From Solirubrobacterales bacterium (GTDB lineage: Bacteria > Actinomycetota > Thermoleophilia > Solirubrobacterales > 70-9): a DNA stretch of 64,000 nt. Of the stretch, positions 4,697-19,241 are shown in pieces (positions within the stretch are counted from its first letter, which is position 1; each line of letters opens with the position of its first letter). The notes under the pieces were generated by a model, which ran no database searches, was not told where the DNA came from, and worked only from the letters and a program-made list of their open reading frames with translations. A program made the translations under genes and the position numbers. Where the stretch lies: the NCBI GenBank assembly GCA_020438395.1, contig JAGQUR010000025.1:1-64000 (forward strand), read 5' to 3'.

Positions 4697-6106
4697 GTGA
4701 ATTTGAGCGTTGCTGAGATCAGGAATCCGGAAGGAACCGAGCTGCTGGGCGAGGTCGAACTCACCGACCCCGGCGACGTTGCCGGGGTGGTGGAAAGGGC
4801 CGTCGCCGCGAGGCCGGCCTGGTCGGCCCTTCCGGTGGCCGAGCGGGCGGCGATGCTCGACCGGGCGGCTGACCTGCTCGAACCGAAACAGGAAGCACTT
4901 GGCAGGCTGCTGTCGAAGGAATCCGGCAAGCCGATCGGCCAGGCCGAGTTCGAGGTCGGCGGTGGAATCCACTTCCTCCGGGGCAACGCGATCGAAGGCC
5001 GGCGGCTGGTTGGAAGGGTGCTGCCGACCGAGGGCAACTTCGGCACCGAATGGGACCTCGCCTACACGCGCCGCGAGCCACTCGGCGTGGTCGCGGCGAT
5101 CCTGCCCTTCAACTTCCCGGTCGAACTTTTCGTCGAGAAATGCGCTGCCGCCCTGGTCGGAGGCAATGCCGTCGTCGTCAAGCCTCCGGTCGAAGACCCG
5201 CTCGTGGTCGAGCAGTTCCGCGAGGCTCTGATCGAGGCCGGGGTGCCCTCGGACGCGATCGGCGCGGTCTATGGCGACGCCGAGGTCGGGGCCGCCCTGG
5301 CCGGGGCGCCGGGTGTTGACGCGATCTCGCTCACCGGGTCAACCGCCGCCGGCATCGCGGTGGCGACGGCGACCGCCGCCAGGCTCCCCTTCCTCCACCT
5401 CGAACTCGGCGGCAACAACGCCTGCCTGGTACTCGACGACGCCGACCTCGACCTGGTCGCGGGGGAGATCCTCCGGGGCCGGGTTCTGATGAACGGCCAG
5501 GCCTGTTCGGCCAGCAAGCGGGTGATCGTCGATCGCTCGATCCATGACGAGCTGGCGGCGCGGATGTCCGGGATCGTGGCGGCCCAGAAAGTTGGTCCGG
5601 CGCCGGAATCAGAGACCACGATCGGCCCGCTGATCCACCAGGGCGCGGCCGAGAAGGTGGCCGCCCAGGTCGCGAATGCGAGAAACCAGGGGGCAGAGGT
5701 TGCGGCCGGGTCCGGCGAGGCGGAGGGCGCCTACTTTGCCCCGACCCTGCTGGCCGGGGTGCCCCATTCGGCCGACGTGGCCATCGATGACGAGATCTTC
5801 GGGCCGGTCTTCAACCTGATCCCTGTCGACGGACAGGAGCAGGCGATCGAGGTCGCCAACTCCTCCTCCTTCGGCCTGATGGGCTCGGTCTTCTCGGCCG
5901 ACCCGCAGAGGGCCCTTGCTGTCGCCGAGGTCCTCGAGTCGGGAGGCGTCGTGATCAACGGCACCGACAACTACCGGCCGCCGGTGATCCCCTTCGGCGG
6001 GGTCAAGCTTTCCGGGCGCGGCGTCGAGGGAATCGGCTACACGCTGGAGGAGATGACCCGGGAGAAGCCGATCATCTTCCGGCGCTTCCGGGAACCGAGG
6101 GGCTAG
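4697..6106 (+). CDS. NAD(P)+-dependent aldehyde dehydrogenase
   Basis: 469 residues; oxidises an aldehyde to the acid in the cytoplasm. Family residues present: PFNF (Asn139), VKPP (Lys162), the Rossmann loop LTGST (212-216), LELGGN with general base Glu236, and GQACSASKR with nucleophile Cys270, all at normal spacing. Closest in style to benzaldehyde/vanillin-type or semialdehyde dehydrogenases, but the substrate cannot be read from sequence. GTG 4697 is the first plausible start; no clear ribosome site was seen. The stop is 2 bases from the IclR gene, so the two are co-transcribed. The shared palindromes suggest it serves the pathway encoded from 7061 onward, for example by oxidising a semialdehyde product. 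Confidence 0.9.
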   Translation: MNLSVAEIRNPEGTELLGEVELTDPGDVAGVVERAVAARPAWSALPVAERAAMLDRAADLLEPKQEALGRLLSKESGKPIGQAEFEVGGGIHFLRGNAIEGRRLVGRVLPTEGNFGTEWDLAYTRREPLGVVAAILPFNFPVELFVEKCAAALVGGNAVVVKPPVEDPLVVEQFREALIEAGVPSDAIGAVYGDAEVGAALAGAPGVDAISLTGSTAAGIAVATATAARLPFLHLELGGNNACLVLDDADLDLVAGEILRGRVLMNGQACSASKRVIVDRSIHDELAARMSGIVAAQKVGPAPESETTIGPLIHQGAAEKVAAQVANARNQGAEVAAGSGEAEGAYFAPTLLAGVPHSADVAIDDEIFGPVFNLIPVDGQEQAIEVANSSSFGLMGSVFSADPQRALAVAEVLESGGVVINGTDNYRPPVIPFGGVKLSGRGVEGIGYTLEEMTREKPIIFRRFREPRG

Positions 6107-6108
6107 CG

Positions 6109-6903
6109 ATGGCCCGGCAGCAGGGCGACGGCAAGTACCAGGTGCCGGCTGTGGTCGGGGCGATCAGCGTGCTGAACGAACTTTCCGGCACCGGTGAGGC
6201 GGGGGCGACCCTTTCACAGCTGGTCGAATCAACCGGGCTGTCCAAGAGCACCATGCACAACCTGCTCTCGACCCTCGACAGCCACGGCTTCGTGCGCCGG
6301 GACGCAAACACGAGGCAGTACCGGCTCGGTCCGGCCCTCATTCCCCTCGGCAATGAGGCGGCCCGTCAGGTCAAGCTGGTCCGCAGCACCCTCGACCGGG
6401 TGGCCCCTCTGGCCGGCCGTTACGGACTCTCCTTCGCGGTTGCCCAGCCGATCGACTCGAGTGAGCTACGGATCATCAGCCGTTTCTACCCGCCGGGTGA
6501 CGTCCACGTCGGCATCACCGTCGGTAGCGCCTACGGACCCATGGACGGGGCGCTCGGCAAAGTCCTGCTCTCCGCGATGGACGAAGATCAGGCGAGAAGG
6601 CTGATCAAGGGCCGCAAGCTTCCTGCCCACACCCGGGCGACCATCACCAGTCCCGAATCCCTGATCGGGGAGGTGGAGGAGGTGAGGTCGCGGGGCTGGT
6701 CCGTCTCCCACGGCGAATTCAACGAGAACAACGCTGTGGCGGCGGGGATCTGGGGGACCGGCGGTGACCTCGAACTGGTTCTGCTCGCTCTCGGATTCCC
6801 GACCCAGTTCGACGGGGAGCGGCTCGCTGAAATCGGAGAGGTGCTGCGGGACACGGCCGACGAGGTGATGAACGGCGCCGGAGTGGCCGCGCCGGGCCGA
6901 TAA
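6109..6903 (+). CDS. IclR family transcriptional regulator
   Basis: 264 residues. The N-terminal winged helix-turn-helix (about 15-75) includes LSQLVESTGLSKSTMHNLLS followed by RRDANTRQYRLGPALIPLG, the classic IclR linker. The C-terminal GAF-like effector domain (about 85-255) includes MDGALGKVLLSAM and the SHGEFNENNAVAAGIW stretch typical of IclR ligand pockets. IclR proteins usually repress adjacent catabolic genes until the substrate or an intermediate binds. It sits between two units that share GAAC-yy-GGTTC palindromes and probably controls both. Starts 2 bases after the dehydrogenase stop. Confidence 0.92.
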   Translation: MARQQGDGKYQVPAVVGAISVLNELSGTGEAGATLSQLVESTGLSKSTMHNLLSTLDSHGFVRRDANTRQYRLGPALIPLGNEAARQVKLVRSTLDRVAPLAGRYGLSFAVAQPIDSSELRIISRFYPPGDVHVGITVGSAYGPMDGALGKVLLSAMDEDQARRLIKGRKLPAHTRATITSPESLIGEVEEVRSRGWSVSHGEFNENNAVAAGIWGTGGDLELVLLALGFPTQFDGERLAEIGEVLRDTADEVMNGAGVAAPGR

Positions 6904-6944
6904 ATGACCGGGCCGTATTTTCTCCCGCGGTACAGGAAAAAGGG

Positions 6945-6974: not shown

Positions 6975-6989
6975 TCTGTCCACGATATA

Positions 6990-7021: not shown

Positions 7022-7060
7022 AGTCTCCCGGACAACCGGGAGCTCTGACAGGAGACCGAA

Positions 7061-8632
7061 GTGAGCGAACCGAGGGAAGTGGATCTGGTCATCAAGGGCG
7101 GCACGGTGGTCAGCCCGAGCGGTACCCGCAAGGTAGGCGTCGCGGTTGACGGGGGCAAAGTCGTTGCCGTGACCGCCGACGAGTTCCTGCCACCTGCGAA
7201 GAAGACGGTTGACGCGACCGGGCTTCACGTGATCCCCGGACTGGTCGACACCGAGGCCCACCCCGGCTGTTACTCGCCACTCAAGGACGACCTCGCCAGC
7301 GAATCGATCGCTGCGGTCACCGCCGGCGTCACCACCTGGGGGGTCCACGCCCCCTCGACCCGGATGGGCCATCCCGACTTCGCCGAGTACGTCCAGAAGG
7401 AAGACGTCATGTCCTTCCATGACTCCTTCCCCTACTTCGAGGCGCTGACCGAATCCGACTCGGCGATCGACATCTTCCTCACCTACATGCTGGAGACCGA
7501 CCAGCAGGCCGCGGAAATCCCCGAGTACGCAAAGGATCACGGCGTCACCTCCTACAAGCTCTACCTCCAGGCGATGAGCCCCGAGGCCGAGCCGAACTGG
7601 CCGGGCCGCCGGGCCGGACTCGGTGCCGGCTTCGACGACGGCGTCTGCTGGGTGACCATGGAGAACGTCGCGGCGCTCGGCCGTCCCGGCGTGGTCTGCA
7701 TGCACTGCGAGAACTGGGAGATCGCCCGCATCTTCGACAAGCGACTGAAGGAAGAGGGGCGGACCGACTGGGCGACCTGGTCGGACCGCTCCCCCCATTA
7801 CCTCGAGGCCTCGCACATCCGTTGGTACGGGGACATGGCCGCCGAGATCGGCTGCCCGATCTACATCCAACATTCGACCACCCCAGAGTCCTACAAGGAG
7901 ATCCTCGAACTGCGCGGCCGCGGGGTCGAGATCTACGCCCAGACCGGTCCGCACTGGCTGCACTTCGGCAAGGGCGAGCACAACGCCTGGCGGATCAACG
8001 TGCCGCTCCGCTCCCGCGAGAACAATCCGAACATCTGGACAGCGCTGCAGTGCGGGATCATCGATTCGGTCGGCTCCGACCACGTGGTCGCCTGGGAGCC
8101 CGCCGATTACGAGTCCTCCTACAACGAGAACATCTGGGAGCTCAAGACCGGCTTCACCTCCAGGGTCGAGATGCACCTGCCGGTCCTGCTCGAAGGGGTC
8201 CATCAGGGCAAGCTCACGATCGAGCGCCTGGTCGAGGTGGCCTGCGCGAACCCGGCCCGGATCTTCGGCGTCTACCCGCAGAAGGGACTGATCGAGGTCG
8301 GCGCCGACGCCGACATCGTGCTGGTGGACCTGAACAAGGAAGTCACGGTCAAGAACGAGAACGTGCTGACCCGCTCGGGCTGGACATGCATCGACGGCCA
8401 CACCATTCACGGCTACCCGGTCGCCACCTTCCTGCGCGGCAAGCAGATGTCGAAGTTCGACGACGGTGCCCCCGGCCCGGAGTTCATCGGTGATGCCGAC
8501 GGTCACTACATCCGCCGGACCCCGGGCCAGGACCTGCTGCCGGTGGCCGGCGGCGAAGGGGCCCGGGCCGAGGTGCGGAAGCTGCCGAAGCTGGGCAAGC
8601 CCGAAGGCAGCGCAGTGGGGATCGATGTCTGA
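7061..8632 (+). CDS. Hydantoinase/dihydropyrimidinase-like amidohydrolase
   Basis: 523 residues. Cyclic amidohydrolases of this family open hydantoin, dihydropyrimidine or allantoin-like rings with a binuclear metal centre. Seen: N-terminal strand domain (VDLVIKGGTVVSPSG), GLVDTEAHPG (60-69), SYKLYLQ with the candidate carboxylated Lys, VCMHCEN, YIQHST, and GSDHVVAWEP with the catalytic Asp, then the C-terminal strand domain (GADADIVLVDLN). The usual D-x-H-x-H is D-T-E-A-H, so the first metal His is Glu65. GTG 7061 follows a GGAG ribosome site. It is the first gene of the operon and overlaps the next gene by 8 bases. Substrate unknown; ring opening is an inference. Confidence 0.85.
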   Translation: MSEPREVDLVIKGGTVVSPSGTRKVGVAVDGGKVVAVTADEFLPPAKKTVDATGLHVIPGLVDTEAHPGCYSPLKDDLASESIAAVTAGVTTWGVHAPSTRMGHPDFAEYVQKEDVMSFHDSFPYFEALTESDSAIDIFLTYMLETDQQAAEIPEYAKDHGVTSYKLYLQAMSPEAEPNWPGRRAGLGAGFDDGVCWVTMENVAALGRPGVVCMHCENWEIARIFDKRLKEEGRTDWATWSDRSPHYLEASHIRWYGDMAAEIGCPIYIQHSTTPESYKEILELRGRGVEIYAQTGPHWLHFGKGEHNAWRINVPLRSRENNPNIWTALQCGIIDSVGSDHVVAWEPADYESSYNENIWELKTGFTSRVEMHLPVLLEGVHQGKLTIERLVEVACANPARIFGVYPQKGLIEVGADADIVLVDLNKEVTVKNENVLTRSGWTCIDGHTIHGYPVATFLRGKQMSKFDDGAPGPEFIGDADGHYIRRTPGQDLLPVAGGEGARAEVRKLPKLGKPEGSAVGIDV

Positions 8633-9401
8633 GACGGGCGACAGCGGCAACGTCTGGGACGACGTCCTGCCGGAAGAAGACCGGCTGGTCTTCGAGGCCG
8701 CCGGTTGGGGCAAGGACGTCGGCTTCGGCGAGAAGCCCGTCCTGCTGGTCGTCGACGTGATCTACAACTTCTGCGGCGACGTGCCGGAGCCGATCCTCGA
8801 ATCGATCAAGCGCTGGCGCTACTCCTGTGGCGAGCGCAGCTGGGAGGGTGTCAGGCACCTCGAGCGGCTGATCGCCGCCGCCCGCGAGAAGCAGATCCCG
8901 ATCGTCTACACCGGCATGGACCGCCGGCCGGACGGCTTCGACCAGGGTGCCTGGAACTGGAAGAGCTATCGCTCCGGCGAGGCCTCTGACATCAAGGGCT
9001 CGCTCGGAAACGAGATCGTCGAGGAGATCAAGCCGGAGCCACAGGACATCTACTTCGTCAAGGACAAGCCAAGCGCCTTTCACGGGACCCACCTGCTCGA
9101 CTACCTGATCTATCTGGGGGCCGACACGGTGATCACGACCGGCACCACGACCAGCGGCTGCGTGCGGGCCAGCGCGGTCGATGCCACCCAGTACAACTAC
9201 CGCTCGATCGTGCCAGAGGAATGCGTCTGGGACCGCTCAATGATCTCCCACAAGGTCAACCTGCTCGACATCCAGATGAAATACGGGGATGTGAAGAAGA
9301 CCGACCAGGTGATCGAATATTTCAAGTCCCTGCCGGACCGGCCCTGCGGGCCGAACACCCCTACCGGCGTCGCCAACACCGACCAGGAGGTGCCGAAGTG
9401 A
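8625..9401 (+). CDS. Isochorismatase-fold cysteine hydrolase, N-carbamoylsarcosine amidase-like
   Basis: 258 residues. The family triad is visible: Asp44 (LLVVDVIYNF), Lys146 (FVKDKPSAFHGT) and nucleophile Cys179 (TTTSGCVRASA), with the usual G-T-T-T-S turn before Cys. Relatives hydrolyse N-carbamoyl or amide bonds (N-carbamoylsarcosine, ureidoacrylate, maleamate), releasing ammonia. Placed directly after a ring-opening amidohydrolase, it would be expected to act on the N-carbamoyl or amide product, as in creatinine/N-methylhydantoin or pyrimidine breakdown (inference). ATG 8625 was chosen from the ribosome site GTGGGG (8615-8620); it overlaps the upstream stop by 8 bases and shares GTGA with the downstream gene. 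Confidence 0.85.
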   Translation: MSETGDSGNVWDDVLPEEDRLVFEAAGWGKDVGFGEKPVLLVVDVIYNFCGDVPEPILESIKRWRYSCGERSWEGVRHLERLIAAAREKQIPIVYTGMDRRPDGFDQGAWNWKSYRSGEASDIKGSLGNEIVEEIKPEPQDIYFVKDKPSAFHGTHLLDYLIYLGADTVITTGTTTSGCVRASAVDATQYNYRSIVPEECVWDRSMISHKVNLLDIQMKYGDVKKTDQVIEYFKSLPDRPCGPNTPTGVANTDQEVPK

Positions 9402-9979
9402 GTGAAGAGCTGGACCTCGACGTGGAAGTCCGGAAGATCGTCACCGTGGTCGAAGAAGTCCACACCGAGGGCGGCCGGGGTGACGGCGGCGGCCCGCTGA
9501 AGAAAGTCGCTGTCGCGGTGGTCTTCAGGAACCCTTACGCGGGCAAGCCCTTTGCCGAGGACCTTTCAGAGTTGGTCGAGGCTTCGGCGGGTCTCGGCAA
9601 GCTGATCGGCGAACGGGCAAACGAGGCGATAGGCGGAGAAGTCGAAAGCCACGGCAAGGCGGTCGTGGTCGGGACGGGCGGCGAGCAGGAACACGGCAAC
9701 GCCGCCAAGACCACGGAGTTCGGTAACCCGTTCCGGGAAGGATTCGGTGGCGGAAAGGCCTGGCTGCCTTCGACCACCAAGCGTTGCGCCCCCGGCGCCA
9801 CTGTGGACGTTCCCCTCTGTTACAAGGACGAGATCTGGGTCCGCTCGCACTACGACACGATCACGATCCAGATCGAAGACGCCCCGGCGCCGGACGAGAT
9901 CGTCCTGATCGGGGCGGTCGCCTCCCGCGGCCGGCTCAACGCCCGCGTCGGTGGCAAGACCAAGGAAGAGGTCGAGTAG
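9398..9979 (+). CDS. DUF1185 (amino acid synthesis family) protein
   Basis: 193 residues from GTG 9398, which overlaps the upstream stop as GTGA and has GGAGG at 9386-9390. The pattern VRKIVTVVEEVHTEGG...VAVAVVFRNPYAG, then HGKAVVVGTGGEQEHGNA, RSHYDTITIQIEDAPAPDEIVLIGA and SRGRLNARVGG is that of PF06684. Structures of the family show a variant of the Bacillus chorismate-mutase fold, and no reaction has been established to my knowledge. Such genes often neighbour amidohydrolases. The conserved His and Glu residues around GEQEHG could form an active site between subunits (inference). No signal peptide, so cytoplasmic. Confidence 0.85.
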   Translation: MSEELDLDVEVRKIVTVVEEVHTEGGRGDGGGPLKKVAVAVVFRNPYAGKPFAEDLSELVEASAGLGKLIGERANEAIGGEVESHGKAVVVGTGGEQEHGNAAKTTEFGNPFREGFGGGKAWLPSTTKRCAPGATVDVPLCYKDEIWVRSHYDTITIQIEDAPAPDEIVLIGAVASRGRLNARVGGKTKEEVE

Positions 9980-10043
9980 AGACCATGGCCCGGGCCGGCA
10001 AGAGACTTGCGGCGCGGGCCGCAGGCGGATCGAGAGGAAGCCG

Positions 10044-11198
10044 GTGAGCCGGACCCTCGAGATCCGCAACCTCTCCGGCCTGGTGACCGGCAGGCTCGAT
10101 GACGATGTCCTGACCCCGGAAGTGATCCGGGTCGAAGACGGAACGATCGCCGGCTTCGAGCCCGGTCCCGACCCCGACGTCGTGCTCGACGCCGGCGGGG
10201 CGATGGTCTGCCCGGGCCTGATCGATTCGCATGCCCACGTGGTCTTCGGGGACTGGACGCCGCGCCAGAGCACCCTGGGCTGGATCGAGTCTTCGATGAA
10301 CGGCGGGGTGACCTCGATGATGTCGGCCTCCGAGGTCCACCTCCCGGGGCGGCCAAAGGACCGGGAGGGGGTGAAGGCCCTGGCGGTTGCCGCCCAGCGG
10401 GCCTTCGAGAATTTCCGTCCCGGCGGGGTGAAGGTGATGGCCGGCTCGGTGATCATCGAGCCCTGTCTTGAACCGGGGGATTTCGCTGAACTCAAGGAAA
10501 ACGGGGTGTGGCTGGCCAAGGTCGGATTCGGTGACTTCAGCCCCCAGGCGGACGCCGCGCCGCTGGTCCGGGCCGCACAGGAAAACGGCTTCGTCGTGAT
10601 GAACCACACCGGGGGCGCCTCGATCCCCGACTCATCGCCGGTCACCATCGATGATGTGCTGGCCCTCGGCTGCGACATCATCGGCCACGCCAACGGCGGA
10701 ACGACGGCCCTGCCGGACGAGGACCTTCCCCGCCTCTTTGACGCACCCGGTGCCATCCAGCTGGTTCAGGCCGGCAACCTCCGATCCAGCATGGAGATCG
10801 TCGAGGTCGCATGGGACAGGGACCTGCTCGACCGGCTTGTGCTGGCGACCGACACTCCGACGGGGACCGGAGTCATGCCGCTCGGCATGATCAAGACGGT
10901 CTGCGAGATCTCATCGCTCTGCGGCATGGCGGCCCCGAAGGCGATCGCCCTGGCGACCGGCAACAACGGTGCCGTCCTCGGGGTCGAACAGGGGGTGCTG
11001 GACACCGGCCGCCCCGCCGATCTCTTCTGCTGCTTCCGTCCTCTGGGTTCTTCCCAGAACGGGCCGCTGGAATCAATCGAATACGGCGACATCCCCGGGA
11101 TCGCCGCGGTTGTGATCGACGGCGAGGTGAGGGCACTCAGGTCGAGAAACACGCCGGCTCCGGACGGGGCCTGTGAAATCAAGGAGAAGAATGGCTGA
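10044..11198 (+). CDS. Enamidase-like amidohydrolase
   Basis: 384 residues. GTG 10044 is supported by GAGAGGAAG at 10032-10040. Metal-binding amidohydrolase signatures: DSHAHVVFGD (His63, His65), a Lys in WLAKVGFGDFS, VVMNHTGG, GHANGGTTALP and ATDTPTGTGVMPLGM with the catalytic Asp. The last two motifs are characteristic of enamidase, which hydrolyses 6-oxo-1,4,5,6-tetrahydronicotinate in anaerobic nicotinate fermentation. Here the other nicotinate-pathway genes are absent, so the substrate is probably another cyclic enamide or lactam. It is the second ring-type amidohydrolase in the operon and overlaps the DUF1989 gene by 8 bases. Confidence 0.8.
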   Translation: MSRTLEIRNLSGLVTGRLDDDVLTPEVIRVEDGTIAGFEPGPDPDVVLDAGGAMVCPGLIDSHAHVVFGDWTPRQSTLGWIESSMNGGVTSMMSASEVHLPGRPKDREGVKALAVAAQRAFENFRPGGVKVMAGSVIIEPCLEPGDFAELKENGVWLAKVGFGDFSPQADAAPLVRAAQENGFVVMNHTGGASIPDSSPVTIDDVLALGCDIIGHANGGTTALPDEDLPRLFDAPGAIQLVQAGNLRSSMEIVEVAWDRDLLDRLVLATDTPTGTGVMPLGMIKTVCEISSLCGMAAPKAIALATGNNGAVLGVEQGVLDTGRPADLFCCFRPLGSSQNGPLESIEYGDIPGIAAVVIDGEVRALRSRNTPAPDGACEIKEKNG

Positions 11199-11772
11199 AG
11201 TGATCGTCCCGGCAAGGGAAGCAAGGACCATGGAAGTGAAGAAGGGCCAGACCCTGGAGATTGTGGATCTCGAAGGGCAGCAGGTGGGGGATTTCACCGC
11301 CTGGCTCGCCTCGGACCCGAACGAATACCTCTCGCCCAGCCACACGGTCTCGTCGAACGGGAAGCTCGTTCCCGAGGTCGGAGACAACATCCTGTCGAAC
11401 CACCGCACCCCTCTCTTGAAGATCCTTCGCGACGACGTCGGACGGCACGACCTGGTTGTCCCCTGCTGCGACCCGGAGCGCTACGCGATCGACTACGACG
11501 CACCGGACCACGGCTCCTGCCTGCTCTCCCTGCAGACCGCGACCGAGGGCATGGGCCTTCCGTTGCGCGGCGAGATGTGCTGGAACGTCTTCATGAACAA
11601 CCAGGTGGAAGACGGGAAGATCGTCACCTACGAGCCGCCTCATCCGGCCGGTTCCACGATTGCGATGGAGGTGCTGGAGGACATGACCGTGGCCCTTTCG
11701 GCCTGCCCCCAGGACATCTCCGCGGTCAACGCCTTCAACCCGACCCCGATGGCGCTGAGGACCAGTGACTGA
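11191..11772 (+). CDS. DUF1989 (urea carboxylase-associated) protein
   Basis: 193 residues. ATG 11191 follows AAGGAGAAGA. Family marks: the N-terminal VPAREARTMEVKKGQTLEIVD barrel, QQVGDFTAW, LSPSHTV, the PCCDPERYAIDY...DHGSC block and EMCWNVFMN...ITYEPP-like end. PF09347 includes CgdA/CgdB, which together hydrolyse carboxyguanidine to allophanate, and other proteins linked to urea carboxylase. Here it is a single gene with no urea or guanidine carboxylase beside it, so it may act alone on another C-N substrate made by this pathway. It overlaps the upstream gene and abuts the aldolase-like gene without a gap. Confidence 0.85.
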   Translation: MAEVIVPAREARTMEVKKGQTLEIVDLEGQQVGDFTAWLASDPNEYLSPSHTVSSNGKLVPEVGDNILSNHRTPLLKILRDDVGRHDLVVPCCDPERYAIDYDAPDHGSCLLSLQTATEGMGLPLRGEMCWNVFMNNQVEDGKIVTYEPPHPAGSTIAMEVLEDMTVALSACPQDISAVNAFNPTPMALRTSD

Positions 11773-12438
11773 GTGACCGGAGTGCCGCGAACATCCGCCG
11801 ACGAAGTGGCCGAAGCAGCCCGGATCCTCACCGGAGCCGGGCTGGTCGAGGCATTCGGACATGTCTCGGCTCGCGATGGCGACGGTTTCCTGATCACCTC
11901 GACCCGGCCGCTCGGCGCCGCCGGCGGCGAGGATGTGCACAGGATGGATTCGCAGGGCAAAGCCCCGGAAGATGCTTCGGACGTGCCGCTGGAGACCCCG
12001 ATGCACGCCGCCGTCTACGCGGCCCGGGATGACGTGAACGCGATCTGCCGCACCCATTCCCCGGCTGCCGTCCGGGCCGGGGCCGAGGGCGAGGTGCCGC
12101 CGCTGGTCCATGGCCTCGGCGGACTTGCCGGTGAGGTGGCTTACTCGGGGCGTACCGACCTGGTTGCCGACGAGGCGGCCGGCAGGGAGGTCGCAGGAGA
12201 TCTCGGGGAGGCAAATTGTCTTTTGATCCGCGGAAACGGCGCGATCGCCACTGGCCGGAACATGGCCGAAGCGGTCGTCCGGGCCCGCTATCTGGAGGAG
12301 AGGTGCCTGGCTGGAAATGGGCTCGAACAGGAGGCCGGTTGGAGGGCCGACCTGCTGGGGCCCCGGGCCAGGTGGTTCGAAAAGGAAACGACCCGGGCCT
12401 TCGCCTGGTTGCGATGGAGGTATGGAGGAGATTCTTGA
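11773..12438 (+). CDS. Class II aldolase/adducin-fold protein with altered metal site
   Basis: 221 residues; GTG 11773 directly follows the DUF1989 stop. Fold marks: GLVEAFGHVSARDGDGFLIT, ETPMHAAVYAARDDVNAI, and LLIRGNGAIATGRNMAEAV. Classical members bind a divalent metal through H-x-H and a later His and cleave aldols or decarboxylate. Here the first pair reads RTHS (first His is Arg) and the later N-H-G reads G-N-G, leaving one obvious His ligand. It may therefore be a decarboxylase or hydrolase relative with different chemistry, or use other ligands. The catalytic-type Glu in ETPMH is present. Cytoplasmic, same operon. Confidence 0.75.
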   Translation: MTGVPRTSADEVAEAARILTGAGLVEAFGHVSARDGDGFLITSTRPLGAAGGEDVHRMDSQGKAPEDASDVPLETPMHAAVYAARDDVNAICRTHSPAAVRAGAEGEVPPLVHGLGGLAGEVAYSGRTDLVADEAAGREVAGDLGEANCLLIRGNGAIATGRNMAEAVVRARYLEERCLAGNGLEQEAGWRADLLGPRARWFEKETTRAFAWLRWRYGGDS

Positions 12439-12508
12439 CGGATCGCTGTGAGCTCGTCCCGGCCGGACGCCGAGCGGGTGTTTCGAACTGACTAACTAGA
12501 GAGGACCC

Positions 12509-13537
12509 ATGAAGTTCACAACCAGTTGGAAAAAGATCATGTTGCTGCTGGCGGCAACGATGGCCCTTGCGGTCGGCGTCGCAGCCTGCGGTTCAAGTGA
12601 CGACGATTCGGGCGGTTCCGGATCTGGCAGTTCAGGCGGCACCAAGAACGCGACCCTTGTGCTCGACTTCATCCCGGGAGCGGTTCACGCCGGGATCTAC
12701 GAGGCGATGCAGAAGGGCTACTACGAGGACAACGGCATCAACCTGAAGATCATCGAGCCGACCTCGACCGCCGACACCCTGAAGCTGATCGACGCCGGCA
12801 AGGCCGATTTCGGCATCGCCGATGGCATCGACCTGGCGACCCAGATCAGCGACGGCCGCGAAGCCCAGGGCATCATGGCGCTGCTCCAGCGTCCGCCCGG
12901 TGGCCTGATCACCCTGAAGGACGACAACATCACCGACCCGAAGCAGCTCGAGGGCAAGACTGTCGGAATCACCGGTGTGCCTTCGGACACGGCGATCCTG
13001 AACACGGTGATGAAGGACGCGGGCGGCAACCCCGACGACGCCAATGTGGTGACGATCGGCTTCAACGGGGTCCAATCCCTCGAAGCCGGAAAGGTGTCCG
13101 CCTTCACCGGATTCATCCCGGCCGACGGCGTCCAGGTTGAAGCCGACGGATACCCGACCAGGTCGTTCCCGCTGGACGAGTACGGCGGACCCTCCTACCC
13201 GGGACTGGTCGTCTTCTCGACCGAGACGAAGATCGGTGACGATCCCGACCTGATGCAGGGATTCGTGGACGCGACGATCAAGGGCTACCAGGATGCCCTG
13301 GCCGATCCGCAGGAGGCGCTGAACGCCCTCTACGCCCAGACCCAGGGTCTCGACAAGGGTCTGCAGAAGAAGGTGTTCGAAGCCTATGTCCCCTACTTCG
13401 GCCCGTCCGACACGTTCGGACAGTTCAACAAGGACAACCTGGAGTCACTGTCCACGTTCATGGTTGACAACGACCTGGCGAGCCAGCCGATCTCGCCCGA
13501 TCGTTACGCGACCACCGAGTTCACCCAGCCCAAGTAG
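12509..13537 (+). CDS. ABC transporter substrate-binding lipoprotein, NMT1/ThiY type
   Basis: 342 residues. A lipoprotein signal ends in LAVGVAAC-GSS (lipobox Cys at residue 27), followed by a Ser/Gly/Asp linker, so it is anchored outside the membrane. The mature fold has the NMT1/THI5 pattern: LVLDFIPGAVHAGIYEAMQKGYY, LIDAGKADFGIADG, GLITLKDDNITDPKQLEGKTVGITG. Relatives bind thiamin pyrimidine precursors, riboflavin, sulfonates or nitrate, so a small aromatic or heterocyclic ligand fits the operon. ATG 12509 has AGAGAGGA upstream. Followed at once by its ATPase and permease genes. Confidence 0.9.
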   Translation: MKFTTSWKKIMLLLAATMALAVGVAACGSSDDDSGGSGSGSSGGTKNATLVLDFIPGAVHAGIYEAMQKGYYEDNGINLKIIEPTSTADTLKLIDAGKADFGIADGIDLATQISDGREAQGIMALLQRPPGGLITLKDDNITDPKQLEGKTVGITGVPSDTAILNTVMKDAGGNPDDANVVTIGFNGVQSLEAGKVSAFTGFIPADGVQVEADGYPTRSFPLDEYGGPSYPGLVVFSTETKIGDDPDLMQGFVDATIKGYQDALADPQEALNALYAQTQGLDKGLQKKVFEAYVPYFGPSDTFGQFNKDNLESLSTFMVDNDLASQPISPDRYATTEFTQPK

Positions 13538-13571
13538 CGATCAGGGCTCAACACAAGTAAGGAGGATTGAC

Positions 13572-14396
13572 TTGCAGGCAGGTTCGAAACTCAGGATCGA
13601 AGATCTTTCCAAGACCTATCGAGGCGTCGGGGGTGGCGACAACGTCACCGCCCTGAAGGACGTCAACATCGAGATAGGGGCTGGCGAGTTCGTGTCGATC
13701 GTGGGGCCTTCGGGTTGCGGCAAGTCGACCCTCTTCAACATCATCGCCGGACTGATCCGGCCGTCGGGTGGCAAGGTGCTGCTCGACGGCCGGCAGCCCG
13801 ACGAGCTGCTCGGATCGGTCGGCTACATGCCACAGCGCGATTGCCTGATGCCCTGGCGGACCGTCCTTGACAACACCACCCTCGGCCTGGAGCTGAACGG
13901 CGTCCGCAAGAAGGAAGCCCACAAGCAGGCCCTGGCCGAGTTCGACCGCTTCGGACTGGCCGGGTTCGAGAAGCACTGGCCGGCCAAGCTTTCCGGCGGC
14001 ATGAAACAGCGTGCCGCCCTGCTCAGGACCTTCCTCGCCGGCCGCGACGTGATGCTGCTGGACGAGCCATTCGGCGCCCTCGATGCCCTGACCCGGGGGA
14101 ACATGCAGGAGTGGCTGCTGGACGTCTGGCAGGAAGACCGCAAGACCATTCTTTTCGTTACCCACGACGTCGAAGAGGCGATTTACCTCTCCGACCGTGT
14201 CTATGTGATGTCCGGCCGGCCGGGCCGGGTCTCGCTTGAAGTGAACGTCAATCTGGAACGGCCCAGGAAGGCGGAGGTCACCATGTCCCCCGAATTCCTG
14301 CTGCTCAAGCAGAAGCTGCTCAGGCCACTTGAGGAGGCCGCCGCCGGCGGGGGCCTCTTCGTTGATGACCGGCCCACCCTGGAGGAGCAGATCTGA
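13572..14396 (+). CDS. ABC transporter ATP-binding protein, SsuB/TauB/ThiZ type
   Basis: 274 residues. The start is TTG 13572, preceded by a very good AAGGAGG site; no ATG or GTG fits. Walker A GPSGCGKSTL, Q-loop MPQRDCLMPW, signature LSGGMKQRAALLR, Walker B VMLLDEPFGALD and H-loop FVTHDVEEA are all intact, so it should hydrolyse ATP to power import with the adjacent permease and lipoprotein. The final 30 residues extend past the core ATPase as in other SsuB-like proteins. It overlaps the permease start by one base (TGATG). Confidence 0.93.
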   Translation: MQAGSKLRIEDLSKTYRGVGGGDNVTALKDVNIEIGAGEFVSIVGPSGCGKSTLFNIIAGLIRPSGGKVLLDGRQPDELLGSVGYMPQRDCLMPWRTVLDNTTLGLELNGVRKKEAHKQALAEFDRFGLAGFEKHWPAKLSGGMKQRAALLRTFLAGRDVMLLDEPFGALDALTRGNMQEWLLDVWQEDRKTILFVTHDVEEAIYLSDRVYVMSGRPGRVSLEVNVNLERPRKAEVTMSPEFLLLKQKLLRPLEEAAAGGGLFVDDRPTLEEQI

Positions 14397-15220
14397 TGTT
14401 CGCCAGAGGAACCCGTTCCCGCCGCGTCGCCGCGGCGGTGCTCCCGCCGCTGCTCTTCGCGATCTTCGTGCTCGCCGTCTGGCAGCTCTACACGGTGGTC
14501 GGCAACATCAGGGAGTCAACCCTGCCGCCGCCGACCGACATCGCCAAGTCGATCTGGGAGAACCGCACCCTGCTGATCGACAACGCCTGGGTCACCATCA
14601 AGGAAATCCTGATCGGCTTCGTCTTCGCGATCCTGCTCGGGGTCGGTCTGGCGGTCCTGATCCGCAGTTCCCGCACGATCGAACGGGCGATCTATCCCTG
14701 GCTGGTCGTCTCCCAGATGGTGCCGATCCCGGCCATCGCTCCGCTCCTGATCATCTGGTTCGGTTTCGAACTCCAGCCCAAGGTGATCGTCATCATGCTG
14801 GTCAGCTTCTTCCCGATCGCGGTCAACACGATCGATGGCCTCAGGGCGGCCGAGCCGGAACTGCTCAACCTGCTGAAGACCCTGAAGGCGAACGCCTGGC
14901 AGCGCTTCCGCAAGGCGCAGTTGCCTGCCGCCCTGCCCTTCCTCTTCTCGGGGCTGAAGGTCGCCGCCGCGCTCTCGGTGATCGGCGCGGTCTTCGCCGA
15001 ATGGGTGGGCGCGTCGGAAGGCCTCGGCTACCTGATCCTGGTCCTGAACAACCAGACTGCGACCACTGACATGTTCGCTGTGATCTTCACGCTGGCCTTG
15101 ATCGGCATCCTGCTTTTCCTGATCGTCACCCTGCTGGAACGGCTGCTGCTCCCCTGGTACTACGAGTCGCGTGAGAGCGAAGGGGAAGGCCTCCACCTCG
15201 AAGTCGAGGAGAAGGCATGA
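14396..15220 (+). CDS. ABC transporter permease, SsuC/ThiX type
   Basis: 274 residues with about six hydrophobic spans starting at residue 13. The cytoplasmic EAA loop is present as LKTLKANAWQRFRKAQLPAALPFLFSGLKVA (the conserved G is displaced), the docking site for the ATPase. The membrane subunit of the same importer. It overlaps the ATPase stop by one base and the deaminase start as ATGA at 15217-15220, pointing to translational coupling of transport and catabolism. Confidence 0.92.
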   Translation: MFARGTRSRRVAAAVLPPLLFAIFVLAVWQLYTVVGNIRESTLPPPTDIAKSIWENRTLLIDNAWVTIKEILIGFVFAILLGVGLAVLIRSSRTIERAIYPWLVVSQMVPIPAIAPLLIIWFGFELQPKVIVIMLVSFFPIAVNTIDGLRAAEPELLNLLKTLKANAWQRFRKAQLPAALPFLFSGLKVAAALSVIGAVFAEWVGASEGLGYLILVLNNQTATTDMFAVIFTLALIGILLFLIVTLLERLLLPWYYESRESEGEGLHLEVEEKA

Positions 15221-16599
15221 GCGGCACGATCGTCCGCGGCGCCTGGGCCCTGACCATGGGGCCGGGGGGCGCGATCCGCGAAGGCGCGGTCGCCTTCGAC
15301 GGAGACGGCAGGATCACCGCTGTCGGAAAGGCGGTGGAGCTTGCGGCGGCGGATCCCGGGGCGACCGTGGTCGGTGACGGCAACGGCATCGTCCTGCCCG
15401 GATTCGTGAACGCCCACACCCACCTGACCGAGGGCCTGATCACCGGGATGGGTGAGACGGCAGTCCTCTGGGAATGGTTCGAGCGGGTCGTGAACCCCTC
15501 CGGAATCAACATCACCAGGGACCAGGTCGAGCTCGGTACCCGTCTGAAGGCGGTCGAGATGCTCGAATCCGGCATCACCACGGTCAATGACATGTGCTGC
15601 CACCGGAACATCGGGTCGCTGGCCTCGCTCGGCGCGGTCGACGGCCTCTCGGCCATGGGCATGCGTGGCGTGGTCTGCTTCGGGGCCGAGGACATGTACG
15701 ACGGGGCACCGGCCGCCGATGAGTTCATGGCCGAGCACGAGGCGCTGGCCGACCGGATCTCCTCCGAAGACATGATCGACTTCCGGATCGGGGTCGGCAC
15801 CGTGCTCGGCATGAGTGACGAACTCTTCAAGCGGACGATCGAGGCCGCGGCGGCCAACGACTGGGCGATCCATACCCATCTCGCCGAGGTGCGGGAGGAG
15901 ATCACCGAGTCGACCCTGCTCCACGGTGGCTCGACCATCCAGCATGCCGACCGGGCCGGGATGCTCGACCACGAAGTGATTGCCGGCCATTGCATCTGGT
16001 GTTCGGAGAATGACATCGGCCTGCTCGCATCCAGTGACGTGGCGGTCGCGCACAACCCGGTCGCGAACATGATTCTCGCCTCCGGGGTCTGCCCGGTCCC
16101 GCGTCTGCTCCGCGAAGGCATCCGGATCGGGATCGGCACCGACGGCGCCGCCAGCAACGATTCCCAGGACATGTTCGGCGCAATCAAGTCGGCCGCCCTG
16201 TTGCAGAAGGTCCACCATCTGCAGGCGGTTTCGATGACCGCGCCACAGGTGATGGAGATGGCGACCATCGGCGGGGCAAAGGCCCTCGGAATGGAACATG
16301 AGATCGGCAGCCTCGAGCCGGGAAAGCGGGCCGACGTGGTCCTGCTTGACGGCAACGGCCCGGAACTGGCCGTGCTTCACGATCCCTTCCAGCAGATCGT
16401 CTATGGCGCTACTCCGCGCAGCGTCTCCGAAGTCTGGGTCGACGGAGAGCTCCGGGTGACCGGGGCCCAGACCGTCGGCGTGGACCGTTCGGCACTTGCC
16501 GCCGAGGCCCGGGAGTCTGCCCGGGACCTGGCGATTCGCGGTGACATGAAGGGCGAGTCGGCCTACGCCGGCCCCCTGGATTTCGAAGAAGGGAAGTAA
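15217..16599 (+). CDS. TrzA/SsnA-type amidohydrolase (deaminase or dechlorinase family)
   Basis: 460 residues. Mononuclear-metal amidohydrolase with every expected residue: NAHTHL near residue 65, IHTHLAEV with the catalytic Glu, AGHC, and GTDGAASND with the catalytic Asp; the C-terminal strand domain ends the protein (PGKRADVVLLDG). The family removes amino or other leaving groups from heteroaromatic rings (guanine, 8-oxoguanine, S-adenosylhomocysteine, cytosine-like and triazine compounds). Subfamily is unclear. It may begin the pathway by deaminating the imported ring, before the hydantoinase-like and enamidase-like steps (inference). Confidence 0.87.
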   Translation: MSGTIVRGAWALTMGPGGAIREGAVAFDGDGRITAVGKAVELAAADPGATVVGDGNGIVLPGFVNAHTHLTEGLITGMGETAVLWEWFERVVNPSGINITRDQVELGTRLKAVEMLESGITTVNDMCCHRNIGSLASLGAVDGLSAMGMRGVVCFGAEDMYDGAPAADEFMAEHEALADRISSEDMIDFRIGVGTVLGMSDELFKRTIEAAAANDWAIHTHLAEVREEITESTLLHGGSTIQHADRAGMLDHEVIAGHCIWCSENDIGLLASSDVAVAHNPVANMILASGVCPVPRLLREGIRIGIGTDGAASNDSQDMFGAIKSAALLQKVHHLQAVSMTAPQVMEMATIGGAKALGMEHEIGSLEPGKRADVVLLDGNGPELAVLHDPFQQIVYGATPRSVSEVWVDGELRVTGAQTVGVDRSALAAEARESARDLAIRGDMKGESAYAGPLDFEEGK

Positions 16600-16602
16600 A
16601 GG

Positions 16603-18237
16603 GTGTCGGAAACCAGTGACGTCGTCCTGATCGGGGCCGGCCATAACGGGCTGGTCTGTGGCTCCTACCTTGCCCGGGCCGGTCTCTCGGTGACGGTGCT
16701 CGAGTCCTCCCACTCTCCCGGAGGCTGCATCTATACCGAGGAGCAGCCTTCCGGAAACCGCCTCGAGCTTGGCGCCTACGAGCACGGCGGCATTCGCGGG
16801 AGCGGGGTGGCGGAGGAGCTCGAACTGGAGTCAAAGTACGGGCTGAGCTTCCACGAACGCGACGAGTTTCTCTTCGCCCCATGTGACGACGGAACCGGCC
16901 TGCCATTCTGGAATTCGCTCGACCGCACGGTTGACGCACTGGCCGACCTGCTCGGCCGCGAGGAAGCCGAGCGTTACCGGGCCTTCTCGAAGTGGTCCGC
17001 AGCGGCAATGGGCGTGCTCGGCCAGACCGAGAACGGGCCGCCGCCAAGCATCCGCTCGCTCGCGTCCCTGGCCGACCTGACCCTTGGCGCGGAAGGGGCA
17101 CGGCTGATGCAGGCCCTGTTCGCGCCGGCCACTGCGGTCACCGAAGCGGCACTCGGGGACGATCGCCTGCGCGGCCCGCTCGACCACTGGGCTGCCCATT
17201 CCCAGCAGCCGCCGCAGGCCCCAGGCACCGGCGCAGGGGCCCTTTTCCTCGCCGCCTCTCATGGTTCACCGGCCAGTCGTCCGGCCGGCGGCTCGGTTGG
17301 CACGATCAATGCCCTGGTCAGTTGCCTGGAGGACGCCGGGGGAAAGCTGGTCTGCGATGCCCCGGCCGAGAAAGTCGAGACGAACGGCGGCCGGGCCACC
17401 GCGGTGATCGCCGCCGGCCAGAGATACGAGGCAGGCAAGGCAGTCGTTTCCGCTATCGATGCCCGAAGGCTTTTCCTGGGCCTGATGGACGAGAGCCAGT
17501 TGCCGGCGCCGCTTCTCGCAGAGGTTCGCCGAATCCACTTCAGCCAGCACAACGTCTCGGAGCTCAAGGTCGACGCGGTGATTGCGGAGGTGCCGAAGGT
17601 CAACGGTCCGGAGGGCATGGAGAAGGCCTTCATGCTTTCTGCGAACACCGGTACCGACATCGCGAAGGCCTTCGCGAGCCTCGGTCTCGGCCAGTTGCCC
17701 GAGCGACCGCCGGTGATGATCGCCTTCCCCTCGACCCTCGAGTCCGGATGGGCCCCGGAGGGACAGGGCGTGGTCTGGCTCTCGACATTTGTGCCCTGGA
17801 CCCCGGAGCGGGGGCAGTGGGACGAGGCCCTGCTGGAAGAGGCGTCGGAGCTGACCTGGAAGACGGCCGAAAAGGCGCTCGGCTGGCAGATGACCCCGGT
17901 CGAGAAGAAGATGACCGGTCCGCTCGAATGGGTGGAGCGCCACGGCAACCCCGGGGCCAATCCGAATCACATCGAGATGAGCATCGACCAGCTGATGGCG
18001 ATGCGGCCATCGGTGAACCTTTCCGGCTATTCGACTCCGATCGGGTCTCTCTACCTGACCGGGGCGGGCACCCACCCAGGTGGCGGTATCACCGGAATGC
18101 CGGGAAGGAACGCGGCCGGAGTGATCCTCGCGGAATTGGGTCTCGCGAAGCGGACCCGGGGCGGAAAACTCAAAGCGCAGGCGGCGCTCCTGAAGGATGC
18201 CCTCCGGGCCACGAGAGAATTGAGGAAGAACGCATGA
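16603..18237 (+). CDS. FAD-dependent oxidoreductase, phytoene-desaturase-like
   Basis: 544 residues from GTG 16603. N-terminal dinucleotide motif GAGHNGLVCGSYLARAG, then VTVLESSHSPGGCIYTEE, and a C-terminal FAD-contact region (YLTGAGTHPGGGITGMPGRNAAG) mark the CrtI/phytoene-desaturase-like flavoproteins. There are no carotenoid genes nearby. In this operon it may oxidise or desaturate the ring or an intermediate. It overlaps the methyltransferase gene as ATGA (18234-18237). Confidence 0.85.
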   Translation: MSETSDVVLIGAGHNGLVCGSYLARAGLSVTVLESSHSPGGCIYTEEQPSGNRLELGAYEHGGIRGSGVAEELELESKYGLSFHERDEFLFAPCDDGTGLPFWNSLDRTVDALADLLGREEAERYRAFSKWSAAAMGVLGQTENGPPPSIRSLASLADLTLGAEGARLMQALFAPATAVTEAALGDDRLRGPLDHWAAHSQQPPQAPGTGAGALFLAASHGSPASRPAGGSVGTINALVSCLEDAGGKLVCDAPAEKVETNGGRATAVIAAGQRYEAGKAVVSAIDARRLFLGLMDESQLPAPLLAEVRRIHFSQHNVSELKVDAVIAEVPKVNGPEGMEKAFMLSANTGTDIAKAFASLGLGQLPERPPVMIAFPSTLESGWAPEGQGVVWLSTFVPWTPERGQWDEALLEEASELTWKTAEKALGWQMTPVEKKMTGPLEWVERHGNPGANPNHIEMSIDQLMAMRPSVNLSGYSTPIGSLYLTGAGTHPGGGITGMPGRNAAGVILAELGLAKRTRGGKLKAQAALLKDALRATRELRKNA

Positions 18238-19241
18238 GTGAAGACCGGACCAACGGTGGCACAGGCGACGCCTACTCGGTCGCCGACCAGATCACCTCCT
18301 ACCAGCAGTCGGCCCTGATCGGAACTGCGGTTGAAGTCGGTCTTCCGGCCGTGCTCTACGGGTCTCCGAAGACCCTCGACGAGCTGACCGGGGCCCTTGG
18401 CACCGATCCGCGCGGAACCATGGGCCTGCTTTCCGGTCTGGTCACCTTCGGCCTGGTCGAACGGGACGGCGACCGGTTTTCCCTGACCGCCGACGGGGAA
18501 CTGCTGGCCGACGACCACCCCGATTCGATCGCAATGATCGCCCGGAAGGAATGGTTCTTCTACAAGCTCTGGGCGAACATGCCCGAGGCGGTCCGGACCG
18601 GTCACACCCAGACCCGGGCCTGGCGCGATCGCCTGGAGAATGACCCCGAGCAGGCCCATGACTTCCTGAGGGCGCTGGATGACCTCTGCCGGCTCTACGG
18701 CGGCGACCTTCCCGGGCTGGCGGACCTCGAGTCGGGCGGTCGCCTGCTCGATGTCGGCGGCGGGGCCGGTTCCCATTCGGCCAACCTGCTCGCCGCGGTC
18801 GACGGTCTCGAGGCCACGGTGCTCGACCTGCCTGGGGCGGAGCCGGTCCTGAGGGAACGCCACCCGGAACTCTCCTTCGTGGAGGGAGACATCGACCAGC
18901 CCCGCTTCGGCCGGCCCGAAGGGGAGGAGTGGGATTACGTCCTCGTATCCAACATCCTCCACGACCATCCGGCCGGGGAAAACGAACGGATCGTCAGGGA
19001 AGCAGCTGGTCTGCTCGCCCCCGGAGGCTCGCTGGTCATCTACGAATGGGTGATCGACGAGGGCCGCACCTCACCGGCCGGCGTCGCTTCGTTCACCCCG
19101 ATGATGGTGATCGAAAACGAAGGCGGCTACACCTGGACCGAAGCCGAAATCGGCGGGTGGATCAGGTCAGCAGGTCTGGAGCCCCGGCCGATAAGCCAGG
19201 GCCCCGGACCCATCGCAGTAATCAGGGCCGAGCGCGCCTAG
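18234..19241 (+). CDS. SAM-dependent O-methyltransferase, hydroxyindole/caffeate type
   Basis: 335 residues. ATG 18234 is coupled to the upstream stop (ATGA), with GAGGAAG at 18222-18228. The N-terminal dimerisation winged helix (about 10-100; AVEVGLPAVLYGSPKTLDELT) precedes the catalytic domain with the SAM loop LLDVGGGAGSHS, the acidic EATVLDLPGAEPVL strand and the catalytic-type His in VSNILHDHP. Relatives methylate hydroxyls on aromatic rings. It is the last gene of the operon. An O-methyltransferase is unexpected in a purely degradative route, so it may detoxify an intermediate or the operon may instead make or modify a compound. The stop overlaps the convergent gene at CTAG. Confidence 0.87.
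   Translation: MSEDRTNGGTGDAYSVADQITSYQQSALIGTAVEVGLPAVLYGSPKTLDELTGALGTDPRGTMGLLSGLVTFGLVERDGDRFSLTADGELLADDHPDSIAMIARKEWFFYKLWANMPEAVRTGHTQTRAWRDRLENDPEQAHDFLRALDDLCRLYGGDLPGLADLESGGRLLDVGGGAGSHSANLLAAVDGLEATVLDLPGAEPVLRERHPELSFVEGDIDQPRFGRPEGEEWDYVLVSNILHDHPAGENERIVREAAGLLAPGGSLVIYEWVIDEGRTSPAGVASFTPMMVIENEGGYTWTEAEIGGWIRSAGLEPRPISQGPGPIAVIRAERA

What the first reader, a model, noticed from the sequence alone, without database searches (positions are those of the whole stretch)
11773..12438. Class II aldolase-fold protein missing two of three canonical metal histidines
The H-T-H metal pair reads R-T-H and the later N-H-G reads G-N-G, while the Glu and fold pattern stay. Either the metal site is rebuilt or the protein does non-metal chemistry, such as a decarboxylase or hydratase step.
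Basis: seen in the sequence. Interest (0 to 1): 0.5.

Follow-up and report, generated by a model that had tools for sequence, protein, structure and literature searches.

The report
Metal-site-less class II aldolase relative
A gene in a conserved bacterial operon that looks built to break down a nitrogen-ring compound makes a protein with the fold of metal-using aldolases, but an arginine and an asparagine sit where two metal-holding histidines should be, and the same swap is shared by a whole branch of relatives that probably remove carbon dioxide without a metal.

Summary
The 221-aa protein at 11773-12438 has a confident class II aldolase/adducin fold in which two metal histidines are Arg93 and Asn155; His95 and Glu74 remain. 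It is not an error or a private mutation. Among 98 distinct relatives compared, all 57 with Arg93 lack His155 (55 Asn, 2 Phe) and all 41 with His93 keep the full triad. A tree built without those columns separates the two sets by one branch (bootstrap 97, SH-aLRT 85). His95 is also lost in two subgroups (14 rows) and no new ligand is fixed, though a Cys at 92 is enriched, so a rebuilt metal site is unlikely for the branch as a whole. Context points to decarboxylation. Sister subgroups sit beside extradiol dioxygenases (15 of 16 loci), one fused to an alpha/beta hydrolase. The window's subgroup sits with an enamidase homologue, a DUF1989 protein and often an aldehyde dehydrogenase or class III aminotransferase, both aldehyde consumers. 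Best reading: a metal-independent beta-oxo-acid decarboxylase in N-heterocycle catabolism. Activity, metal content and substrate are untested. Whether the known decarboxylases CmtD and DhbB carry the same Arg/Asn could not be checked and decides how new this is.

The parts
11773..12438 (+). class II aldolase/adducin-fold protein of the Arg93/Asn155 branch (ALD), 221 aa
   Evidence: AlphaFold2 model pLDDT 95.0, pTM 0.92; structure match 2z7b Z 26.9
11992..11994 (+). Glu74, the retained active-site Glu position
   Evidence: 98 of 98 rows
12049..12057 (+). Arg93-Thr94-His95, in place of His-x-His
12232..12240 (+). Gly154-Asn155-Gly156, in place of Asn-His-Gly
4697..6106 (+). aldehyde dehydrogenase (ALDH), candidate consumer of the aldehyde product
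   Evidence: PF00171 6e-129; NCBIfam models such as lactaldehyde, aminobutyraldehyde and succinate-semialdehyde dehydrogenase, those shown all under cut-off
6109..6903 (+). IclR-family regulator
   Evidence: PF01614/PF09339
7061..8632 (+). hydantoinase/dihydropyrimidinase-like amidohydrolase (HydA)
8625..9401 (+). isochorismatase-fold amidase, best solved match N-carbamoylsarcosine amidohydrolase
   Evidence: start codon my choice
9398..9979 (+). PF06684 (AA_synth/DUF1185) protein
   Evidence: PF06684 1.2e-64; start codon my choice
10044..11198 (+). enamidase homologue (Amd)
   Evidence: 2vun ENAMIDASE E 1.1e-93 over residues 34-409 of the listed ORF; start codon my choice
11173..11772 (+). 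DUF1989 protein; its stop codon abuts the start of ALD
   Evidence: PF09347 3.1e-39
12509..13537 (+). NMT1/THI5-like ABC substrate-binding protein
   Evidence: PF09084 4.1e-57
13560..14396 (+). ABC transporter ATPase
   Evidence: PF00005; start approximate
14396..15220 (+). ABC transporter permease
   Evidence: PF00528
15217..16599 (+). TRZ/ATZ-type amidohydrolase (deaminase-like)
16603..18237 (+). FAD-dependent oxidoreductase
18200..19241 (+). O-methyltransferase-like protein
   Evidence: PF00891; start approximate

Best explanation
The protein belongs to one branch of the class II aldolase fold in which the metal site appears to have been given up in a single step: Arg93 and Asn155 replace two metal-binding histidines and Glu74 is kept. 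The most likely chemistry is metal-independent decarboxylation of a beta-oxo (here probably beta-formyl) carboxylic acid. The Arg guanidinium, helped by Asn155, would take the metal's role of holding the carbonyl and stabilising the enolate left by CO2, and Glu74 or a bound water would return the proton. In this operon the enamidase homologue would open a cyclic enamide to a 2-formyl-dicarboxylate-like acid, this enzyme would remove CO2 to give a semialdehyde, and the operon's aldehyde dehydrogenase (in Acidimicrobiia, a class III aminotransferase) would consume it. Shown here: fold, residue swap and its conservation, single-branch separation, operon and neighbours. Inferred: loss of metal, decarboxylation, catalytic roles, order of steps. 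The starting compound is unknown.
For: Fold: model pLDDT 95; best solved match 2z7b, 3-hydroxy-2-methylpyridine-4,5-dicarboxylate decarboxylase, Z 26.9, rmsd 2.1, 212 aligned, 23% identity (the next rows, pyruvic oxime dioxygenases at Z 26.5 and 26.2, are tied), first also by sequence. Swap: 57 of 57 R93 rows lack His155, 41 of 41 H93 rows keep both, one branch UFBoot 97/SH-aLRT 85 with those columns left out. H95 lost in 14 of 52 rows and no fixed replacement ligand. Context of sister subgroups: extradiol dioxygenase within 6 kb in 15 of 16 loci, families confirmed by Pfam for selected proteins and by annotation. One open frame joins Aldolase_II and an alpha/beta hydrolase (L102). A passage in PMC6362003 says the class II aldolase DhbB is involved in decarboxylating the ring-cleavage product CHMS. 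Context of the window's subgroup: of 35 loci DUF1989 in 34 and enamidase homologue in 29 within 6 kb; ALDH or class III aminotransferase in 26 of 36 loci anywhere on the stretch held. One Acidimicrobiia open frame joins ALD and aminotransferase. Enamidase gives (S)-2-formylglutarate in nicotinate breakdown (passages in PMC7356986 and PMC9304392). It is the only Aldolase_II above cut-off in its own genome, about 86% complete.
Against: No activity, metal or ligand data. The model's coordinates could not be inspected. The sequences of CmtD and DhbB were not obtained, so it is not shown that the proven decarboxylases belong to this branch. Aromatic-catabolism context is not unique to the branch: His-triad relatives also lie near such genes by annotation (L093, L114), although in the 6 His-triad plasmid loci the reference search found VOC in 1 and Rieske in 1. 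The enamidase homologue is missing within 6 kb in 6 of 35 loci, including all three Conexibacter loci, so it cannot always supply the substrate; L045 has none of the eight operon families counted. ALDH and aminotransferase are both absent in 10 of 36 loci; four of those stretches are shorter than 7.1 kb. ALD has the highest dN/dS of 11 operon genes, 0.23 against 0.066-0.216, weaker constraint than its neighbours. His95 is fixed in the window's subgroup and Cys92 is enriched in the branch (43 of 52 rows); my mechanism gives neither a role.
Confidence: 0.45

Rival explanations
1. Metal site rebuilt: in the window's subgroup Glu74 and His95, with His113, His30 or Cys92, still hold a divalent metal and the enzyme is an ordinary metal-dependent aldolase or decarboxylase.
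For: E74 and H30 invariant and H95 fixed in the window's subgroup; H113 in 44 of 52 R93 rows; Cys92 in 43 of 52 R93 rows against Val in 29 of 32 His-triad rows.
Against: H30 and H113 also occur in His-triad relatives (16 of 32 and 14 of 31 rows), so they are not replacements. H95 is Q/M/L/I in 14 of 52 rows, H113 is absent in 8 of 52, Cys92 in 9 of 52, and residue 92 should face away from the site if 93 faces in (inference from strand alternation, strand 90-94). A conserved Arg where a metal ligand was should repel a cation (inference).
Confidence: 0.17
2. Non-metal C-C lyase other than a decarboxylase: retro-aldolase, deformylase (retro-Claisen) or hydratase/tautomerase acting on the ring-opened intermediate.
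For: The superfamily is mechanistically broad: aldolases, an epimerase, a decarboxylase and oxygenases are among the structural matches. A retro-aldol step would also yield an aldehyde for ALDH or aminotransferase.
Against: Several sister loci already encode a dmpG-type aldolase and FAH-fold hydratase candidates (annotation; homologues of the aldolase in 7 of 16 and of the FAH protein in 8 of 16 loci of subgroups B-D). Deformylation would leave no aldehyde for ALDH or aminotransferase.
Confidence: 0.22
3. Catalytically dead partner or scaffold, as adducin is thought to be (recalled), stabilising DUF1989 or the enamidase.
For: Highest dN/dS of the 11 genes compared; gene abuts DUF1989.
Against: R93, E74, H78, G114, G156, E175 invariant in 52 of 52 rows and N155 in 50 of 52, across Actinomycetota, Chloroflexota and proteobacterial plasmids; sole Aldolase_II over cut-off in its genome, so no active paralogue to assist.
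Confidence: 0.08

Closest known systems
3-hydroxy-2-methylpyridine-4,5-dicarboxylate decarboxylase Mlr6791 (PDB 2z7b)
   Same: First match by sequence and fold; FGH-S motif, Glu, His113 position; acts on an N-heterocycle carboxylate by its PDB title
   Different: Keeps histidines at the positions of R93 and N155
3,4-dihydroxyphthalate decarboxylase PhtC (NCBIfam NF053537)
   Same: Best-scoring NCBIfam model (63.9 bits)
   Different: Far below the cut-off of 200; the aldolase-like gene in the Rieske cluster of pASPHE302 (L114, which I take to be PhtC, recalled) has the full His triad
CHMS/HCOMODA decarboxylases DhbB and CmtD
   Same: Same place in operons as my subgroups B-D: ring-hydroxylating dioxygenase, extradiol dioxygenase, decarboxylase (class II aldolase for DhbB, passage in PMC6362003), hydrolase or semialdehyde dehydrogenase, hydratase, aldolase, acetaldehyde dehydrogenase
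   Different: Sequences not available here, so R93/N155 not checked; the window's operon is not an aromatic meta-cleavage operon. That CmtD is of the aldolase fold is recalled.
L-fuculose-1-phosphate aldolase FucA (1fua)
   Same: Fold, Z 24.5, 197 aligned, rmsd 2.6; Glu73 position
   Different: Zn His triad His92/94/155 (numbering recalled) reduced to one His

Membership tests
Class II aldolase/adducin fold family (PF00596) | Significant match to the family model and fold | tested here: met
   92.2 bits vs cut-off 22.2; Z 24.5 to FucA 1fua
Metal-dependent class II (FucA-type) aldolases | Three metal-binding histidines | tested here: not met
   two of three replaced, R93 and N155
Metal-dependent class II (FucA-type) aldolases | Active-site Glu (Glu73 of FucA) | tested here: met
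   E74, 98 of 98 rows
Metal-dependent class II (FucA-type) aldolases | Bound divalent metal | not testable with these tools
   needs purified protein
3,4-dihydroxyphthalate decarboxylase PhtC (NF053537) | NCBIfam equivalog cut-off of 200 bits | tested here: not met
   63.9 bits
CmtD/DhbB ring-cleavage-product decarboxylases | Close sequence relation to proven CmtD or DhbB | not tested
   no sequence of either was fetched
CmtD/DhbB ring-cleavage-product decarboxylases | Encoded beside an extradiol dioxygenase | tested here: not met
   0 of 35 loci of the window's subgroup; 15 of 16 loci of sister subgroups B-D
Adducin | Loss of the catalytic site residues in the head domain (recalled) | not tested
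   adducin 8iah/8iai are sequence and fold matches; residues not compared

The most novel reading that the evidence does not exclude
The Arg93/Asn155 proteins are a metal-free enzyme lineage inside a classic metal-enzyme fold, born once by swapping the metal for an arginine, and used both in aromatic meta-cleavage pathways and, in the window's subgroup, for an unreported reaction: decarboxylation of a 2-formyl-dicarboxylate-type acid downstream of an enamidase in a new N-heterocycle catabolic pathway.
Probability: 0.33. Interest if true: 0.65.

Novelty: new variant of a known kind. Interest (0 to 1): 0.47.

Why it matters
Class II aldolases are the textbook metal-using aldolases. A lineage that appears to have exchanged the metal for an arginine in one step and kept working in catabolic operons would be a clean case of how an enzyme loses its metal. 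The residues (R93, N155, E74) are precise and testable, and the operon looks like an unassigned route for an N-heterocycle in Actinomycetota that are mostly known from metagenomes.

Tried and rejected
Sequencing error or private mutation: rejected, the same residues occur in all 31 loci of the genome-contig scan. Rebuilt metal site as the rule for the branch: disfavoured, though Cys92 is enriched. PhtC membership: rejected on score. Viral carriage: one scan of viral contigs found no relative. Nicotinate pathway as such: considered because of the enamidase homologue; not adopted, because hydantoinase-like, carbamoylsarcosine-amidase-like and TRZ/ATZ enzymes in the same operon do not fit it (my judgement). 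Riboflavin/lumichrome pathway (PMC12746152, passages): looked at for the pyrimidine-ring hydrolysis logic; its set of enzymes differs. Tetralin ThnF (PMC6563040, passages): called a class II aldolase there but compared with homoprotocatechuate-pathway aldolases, so I judged it another family. PF06684 structures paper (PMC2954203, passages): no gene neighbourhood like this one in the passages. Paper searches in the held library on metal loss in this family and on the operon: I saw listings (titles and starts of abstracts) and none described either; one search returned no paper; subscription journals are largely not held. Ligand-site inspection was not possible because no coordinates were available to me. 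Chloroflexota loci L134-L137 were examined for context: one LigB-like dioxygenase (L135) and one weak Rieske match (L136), otherwise uninformative.

On the second check I corrected one count (stretches without ALDH or aminotransferase that are short: four, not five), added the enrichment of Cys92, which I had left out, and raised the rebuilt-site rival from 0.15 to 0.17 for it.

Full report
OBSERVATION. The window encodes an intact 221-aa protein at 11773-12438 on the + strand, a clear Aldolase_II family member. Its AlphaFold2 model from a 47-row alignment is confident (pLDDT 95.0, pTM 0.92). The first solved structure by sequence and by fold (Z 26.9, rmsd 2.1 over 212 residues, 23% identity) is 2z7b, 3-hydroxy-2-methylpyridine-4,5-dicarboxylate decarboxylase; pyruvic oxime dioxygenases are tied with it by Z. 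In the alignment to 2z7b, two histidines face Arg93 and Asn155 of the window protein, whereas Glu74, His95 and His113 are matched.

HOW COMMON AND HOW OLD. A search of 101 genomes (the window's own and 100 relatives) gave 46 with a relative of any kind at E <= 0.001. A scan of genome contigs gave 31 encoding loci, mostly MAGs titled Solirubrobacterales, Solirubrobacteraceae, Actinomycetota or Acidimicrobiia, three Conexibacter, one Actinocorallia and one Chloroflexi MAG; all 31 have R93, H95, N155 and E74. A profile search of 396 Actinomycetota genomes (38 with a match at E <= 1e-20), of 201 Chloroflexota genomes (15 with a match at E <= 1e-22) and tblastn of plasmid records widened the set. 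From these I compared 98 distinct rows: the window, loci whose DNA was returned, and plasmid hits chosen by hand. Two duplicates (L091, L120) were dropped. L001-L015, L023, L026, L028 and L062-L064 were not entered; most are copies of genes that were, but L010 (R-T-H, A-N-G) and L023, L026, L028 (His triad) are distinct and were read, where they fit the same split. Matches without a returned locus were not read. Of the 98, 57 have R93 and 41 have H93. All 57 lack His155 (N in 55, F in 2) and all 41 have His95 and His155; no mixed row was seen. A maximum-likelihood tree with the motif columns left out puts the two sets on either side of one branch (bootstrap 97, SH-aLRT 85; 96% of 200 bootstrap trees). 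An earlier quick tree of 84 rows agreed (one change, support 90). The simplest history is one change; the tree is unrooted, so the direction His to Arg is my inference.

SUBGROUPS. Within the first 52 R93 rows: A, R-x-H with N155 (36 rows, including the window); B, R-x-Q with N155 (7); C, R-x-H with F155 (2); D, R-x-M/L/I with N155 (7). The five Chloroflexota additions are all R-x-H/N155. So the third histidine, too, is dispensable in the branch.

METAL SITE. If the site had been rebuilt, new ligands should be fixed in the R93 rows. At the motifs the positions that set the branch apart are R93, G114 and N155. E74, H78, H30 and E175 are invariant in the R93 rows but also found in His-triad rows. 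Against this, Cys92 is enriched: 43 of 52 R93 rows, where 29 of 32 His-triad rows have Val. It is not fixed and, as the neighbour of R93 on a strand, should face away (inference). The balance argues against a rebuilt site for the branch. In subgroup A, E74 and H95 could still hold a metal, and this was not excluded. Coordinates of the model could not be inspected.

CONTEXT OF SUBGROUPS B-D. In 16 loci, an extradiol dioxygenase homologue (VOC or LigB type) lies within 6 kb in 15; the exception (L099) carries homologues of 4-hydroxy-2-oxovalerate aldolase, acetaldehyde dehydrogenase and an FAH-family protein. The references for that search were taken from some of the same loci, so those hits are self-matches; families were confirmed by Pfam for ten selected proteins and by record annotation for Sphingopyxis, Caballeronia, Tistrella and Sphingobium plasmids. 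One locus has a single 546-aa open frame holding Aldolase_II and an alpha/beta hydrolase domain. This is where the p-cumate and 2,3-dihydroxybenzoate pathways place a decarboxylase for the carboxylated ring-cleavage product, just before a hydrolase. Passages in PMC5224996 describe CmtD at that step, and one in PMC6362003 states that DhbB, a class II aldolase, is involved in it. That CmtD is a class II aldolase family protein is my recollection. Six His-triad plasmid loci searched the same way had a VOC hit in 1 and a Rieske hit in 1, but annotation shows aromatic-catabolism genes near some of them, so this context is suggestive, not exclusive.

CONTEXT OF SUBGROUP A. In 35 loci (the window not counted), within 6 kb: DUF1989 in 34, enamidase homologue in 29, PF06684 in 27, hydantoinase-like and carbamoylsarcosine-amidase-like each in 24, FAD oxidoreductase in 22, TRZ/ATZ amidohydrolase in 20, ALDH in 18; extradiol dioxygenase in none. 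L045 has none of these. In the window the co-directional genes run from about 4697 to 19241. The enamidase homologue matches PDB 2vun at 1.1e-93. Enamidase turns tetrahydro-6-oxonicotinate into (S)-2-formylglutarate (passages in PMC7356986 and PMC9304392), a beta-formyl acid, chemically the sort of compound a decarboxylase would turn into a semialdehyde. Consistent with this, many loci carry an enzyme that could use such an aldehyde: ALDH or class III aminotransferase in 26 of 36 loci (L138 added to the 35). In eight loci (L049-L051, L054-L056, L058, L060; Acidimicrobiia by title or by place in the tree) no ALDH homologue was found on the stretch held and the aminotransferase (PF00202 at 2.9e-110 for L049) follows ALD; in L058 both lie in one 657-codon open frame. 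Loci with neither number 10, four of them on stretches shorter than 7.1 kb.

SELECTION. NG86 estimates between the window and up to seven orthologous loci give ALD dN/dS 0.23, the highest of 11 genes (NMT1 0.216, ALDH 0.203, others 0.066-0.179). The protein is under purifying selection but evolves faster than its neighbours. Its invariant active-site residues argue against a decayed enzyme. In its own genome (completeness 86%) it is the only Aldolase_II above cut-off; one partial match lies below it.

MECHANISM PROPOSED. Arg93, with Asn155, replaces the metal as electrophile that binds the beta-carbonyl and stabilises the enolate after CO2 loss; Glu74 or water reprotonates. Shown: residues, conservation, single-branch split, operons. 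Inferred: absence of metal, reaction, roles, substrate. Rivals, in order: another non-metal lyase step, a rebuilt metal site in subgroup A, a non-catalytic partner.

NOVELTY. The fold and probably the reaction type are known; the metal-site-less branch and its use beside an enamidase did not turn up in my searches of the held library (listings seen). Whether CmtD/DhbB already belong to it is the open question that sets how new this is.

Noticed in passing
window 4697-19241: Conserved catabolic cluster (ALDH, IclR, hydantoinase-like, carbamoylsarcosine-amidase-like, PF06684, enamidase homologue, DUF1989, aldolase-like, NMT1/THI5 ABC transporter, TRZ/ATZ amidohydrolase, FAD oxidoreductase, O-methyltransferase) with unknown substrate; most of it recurs in loci of Solirubrobacterales, Conexibacter and Acidimicrobiia.
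   Followed up: partly
L058 10001-11971 (+): One open frame of 657 codons holding the aldolase-like domain and a class III aminotransferase; a fusion or two genes without a stop between.
   Followed up: partly
L102 5776-7413 (-): 546-aa Aldolase_II plus alpha/beta hydrolase fusion beside Rieske and VOC dioxygenase genes.
   Followed up: yes
L094 7251-8645 (+): Streptomyces plasmid CDS in which the aldolase-like domain follows a TetR-like N-terminal part (by eye, not scanned), with a LigB-type dioxygenase upstream.
   Followed up: partly
L056 about 6970-8100 and L061 about 7260-8600: Unidentified 350-aa protein inserted in the operon, alike by eye in two loci of subgroup A.
   Followed up: no
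window 23330-25993: 887-aa protein with DUF7948, beta-propeller SBBP repeats and CARDB.
   Followed up: no
window 20178-21995: 605-aa protein joining a DsbD_TM-like part, AhpC-TSA/redoxin and Thioredoxin_10 domains.
   Followed up: no
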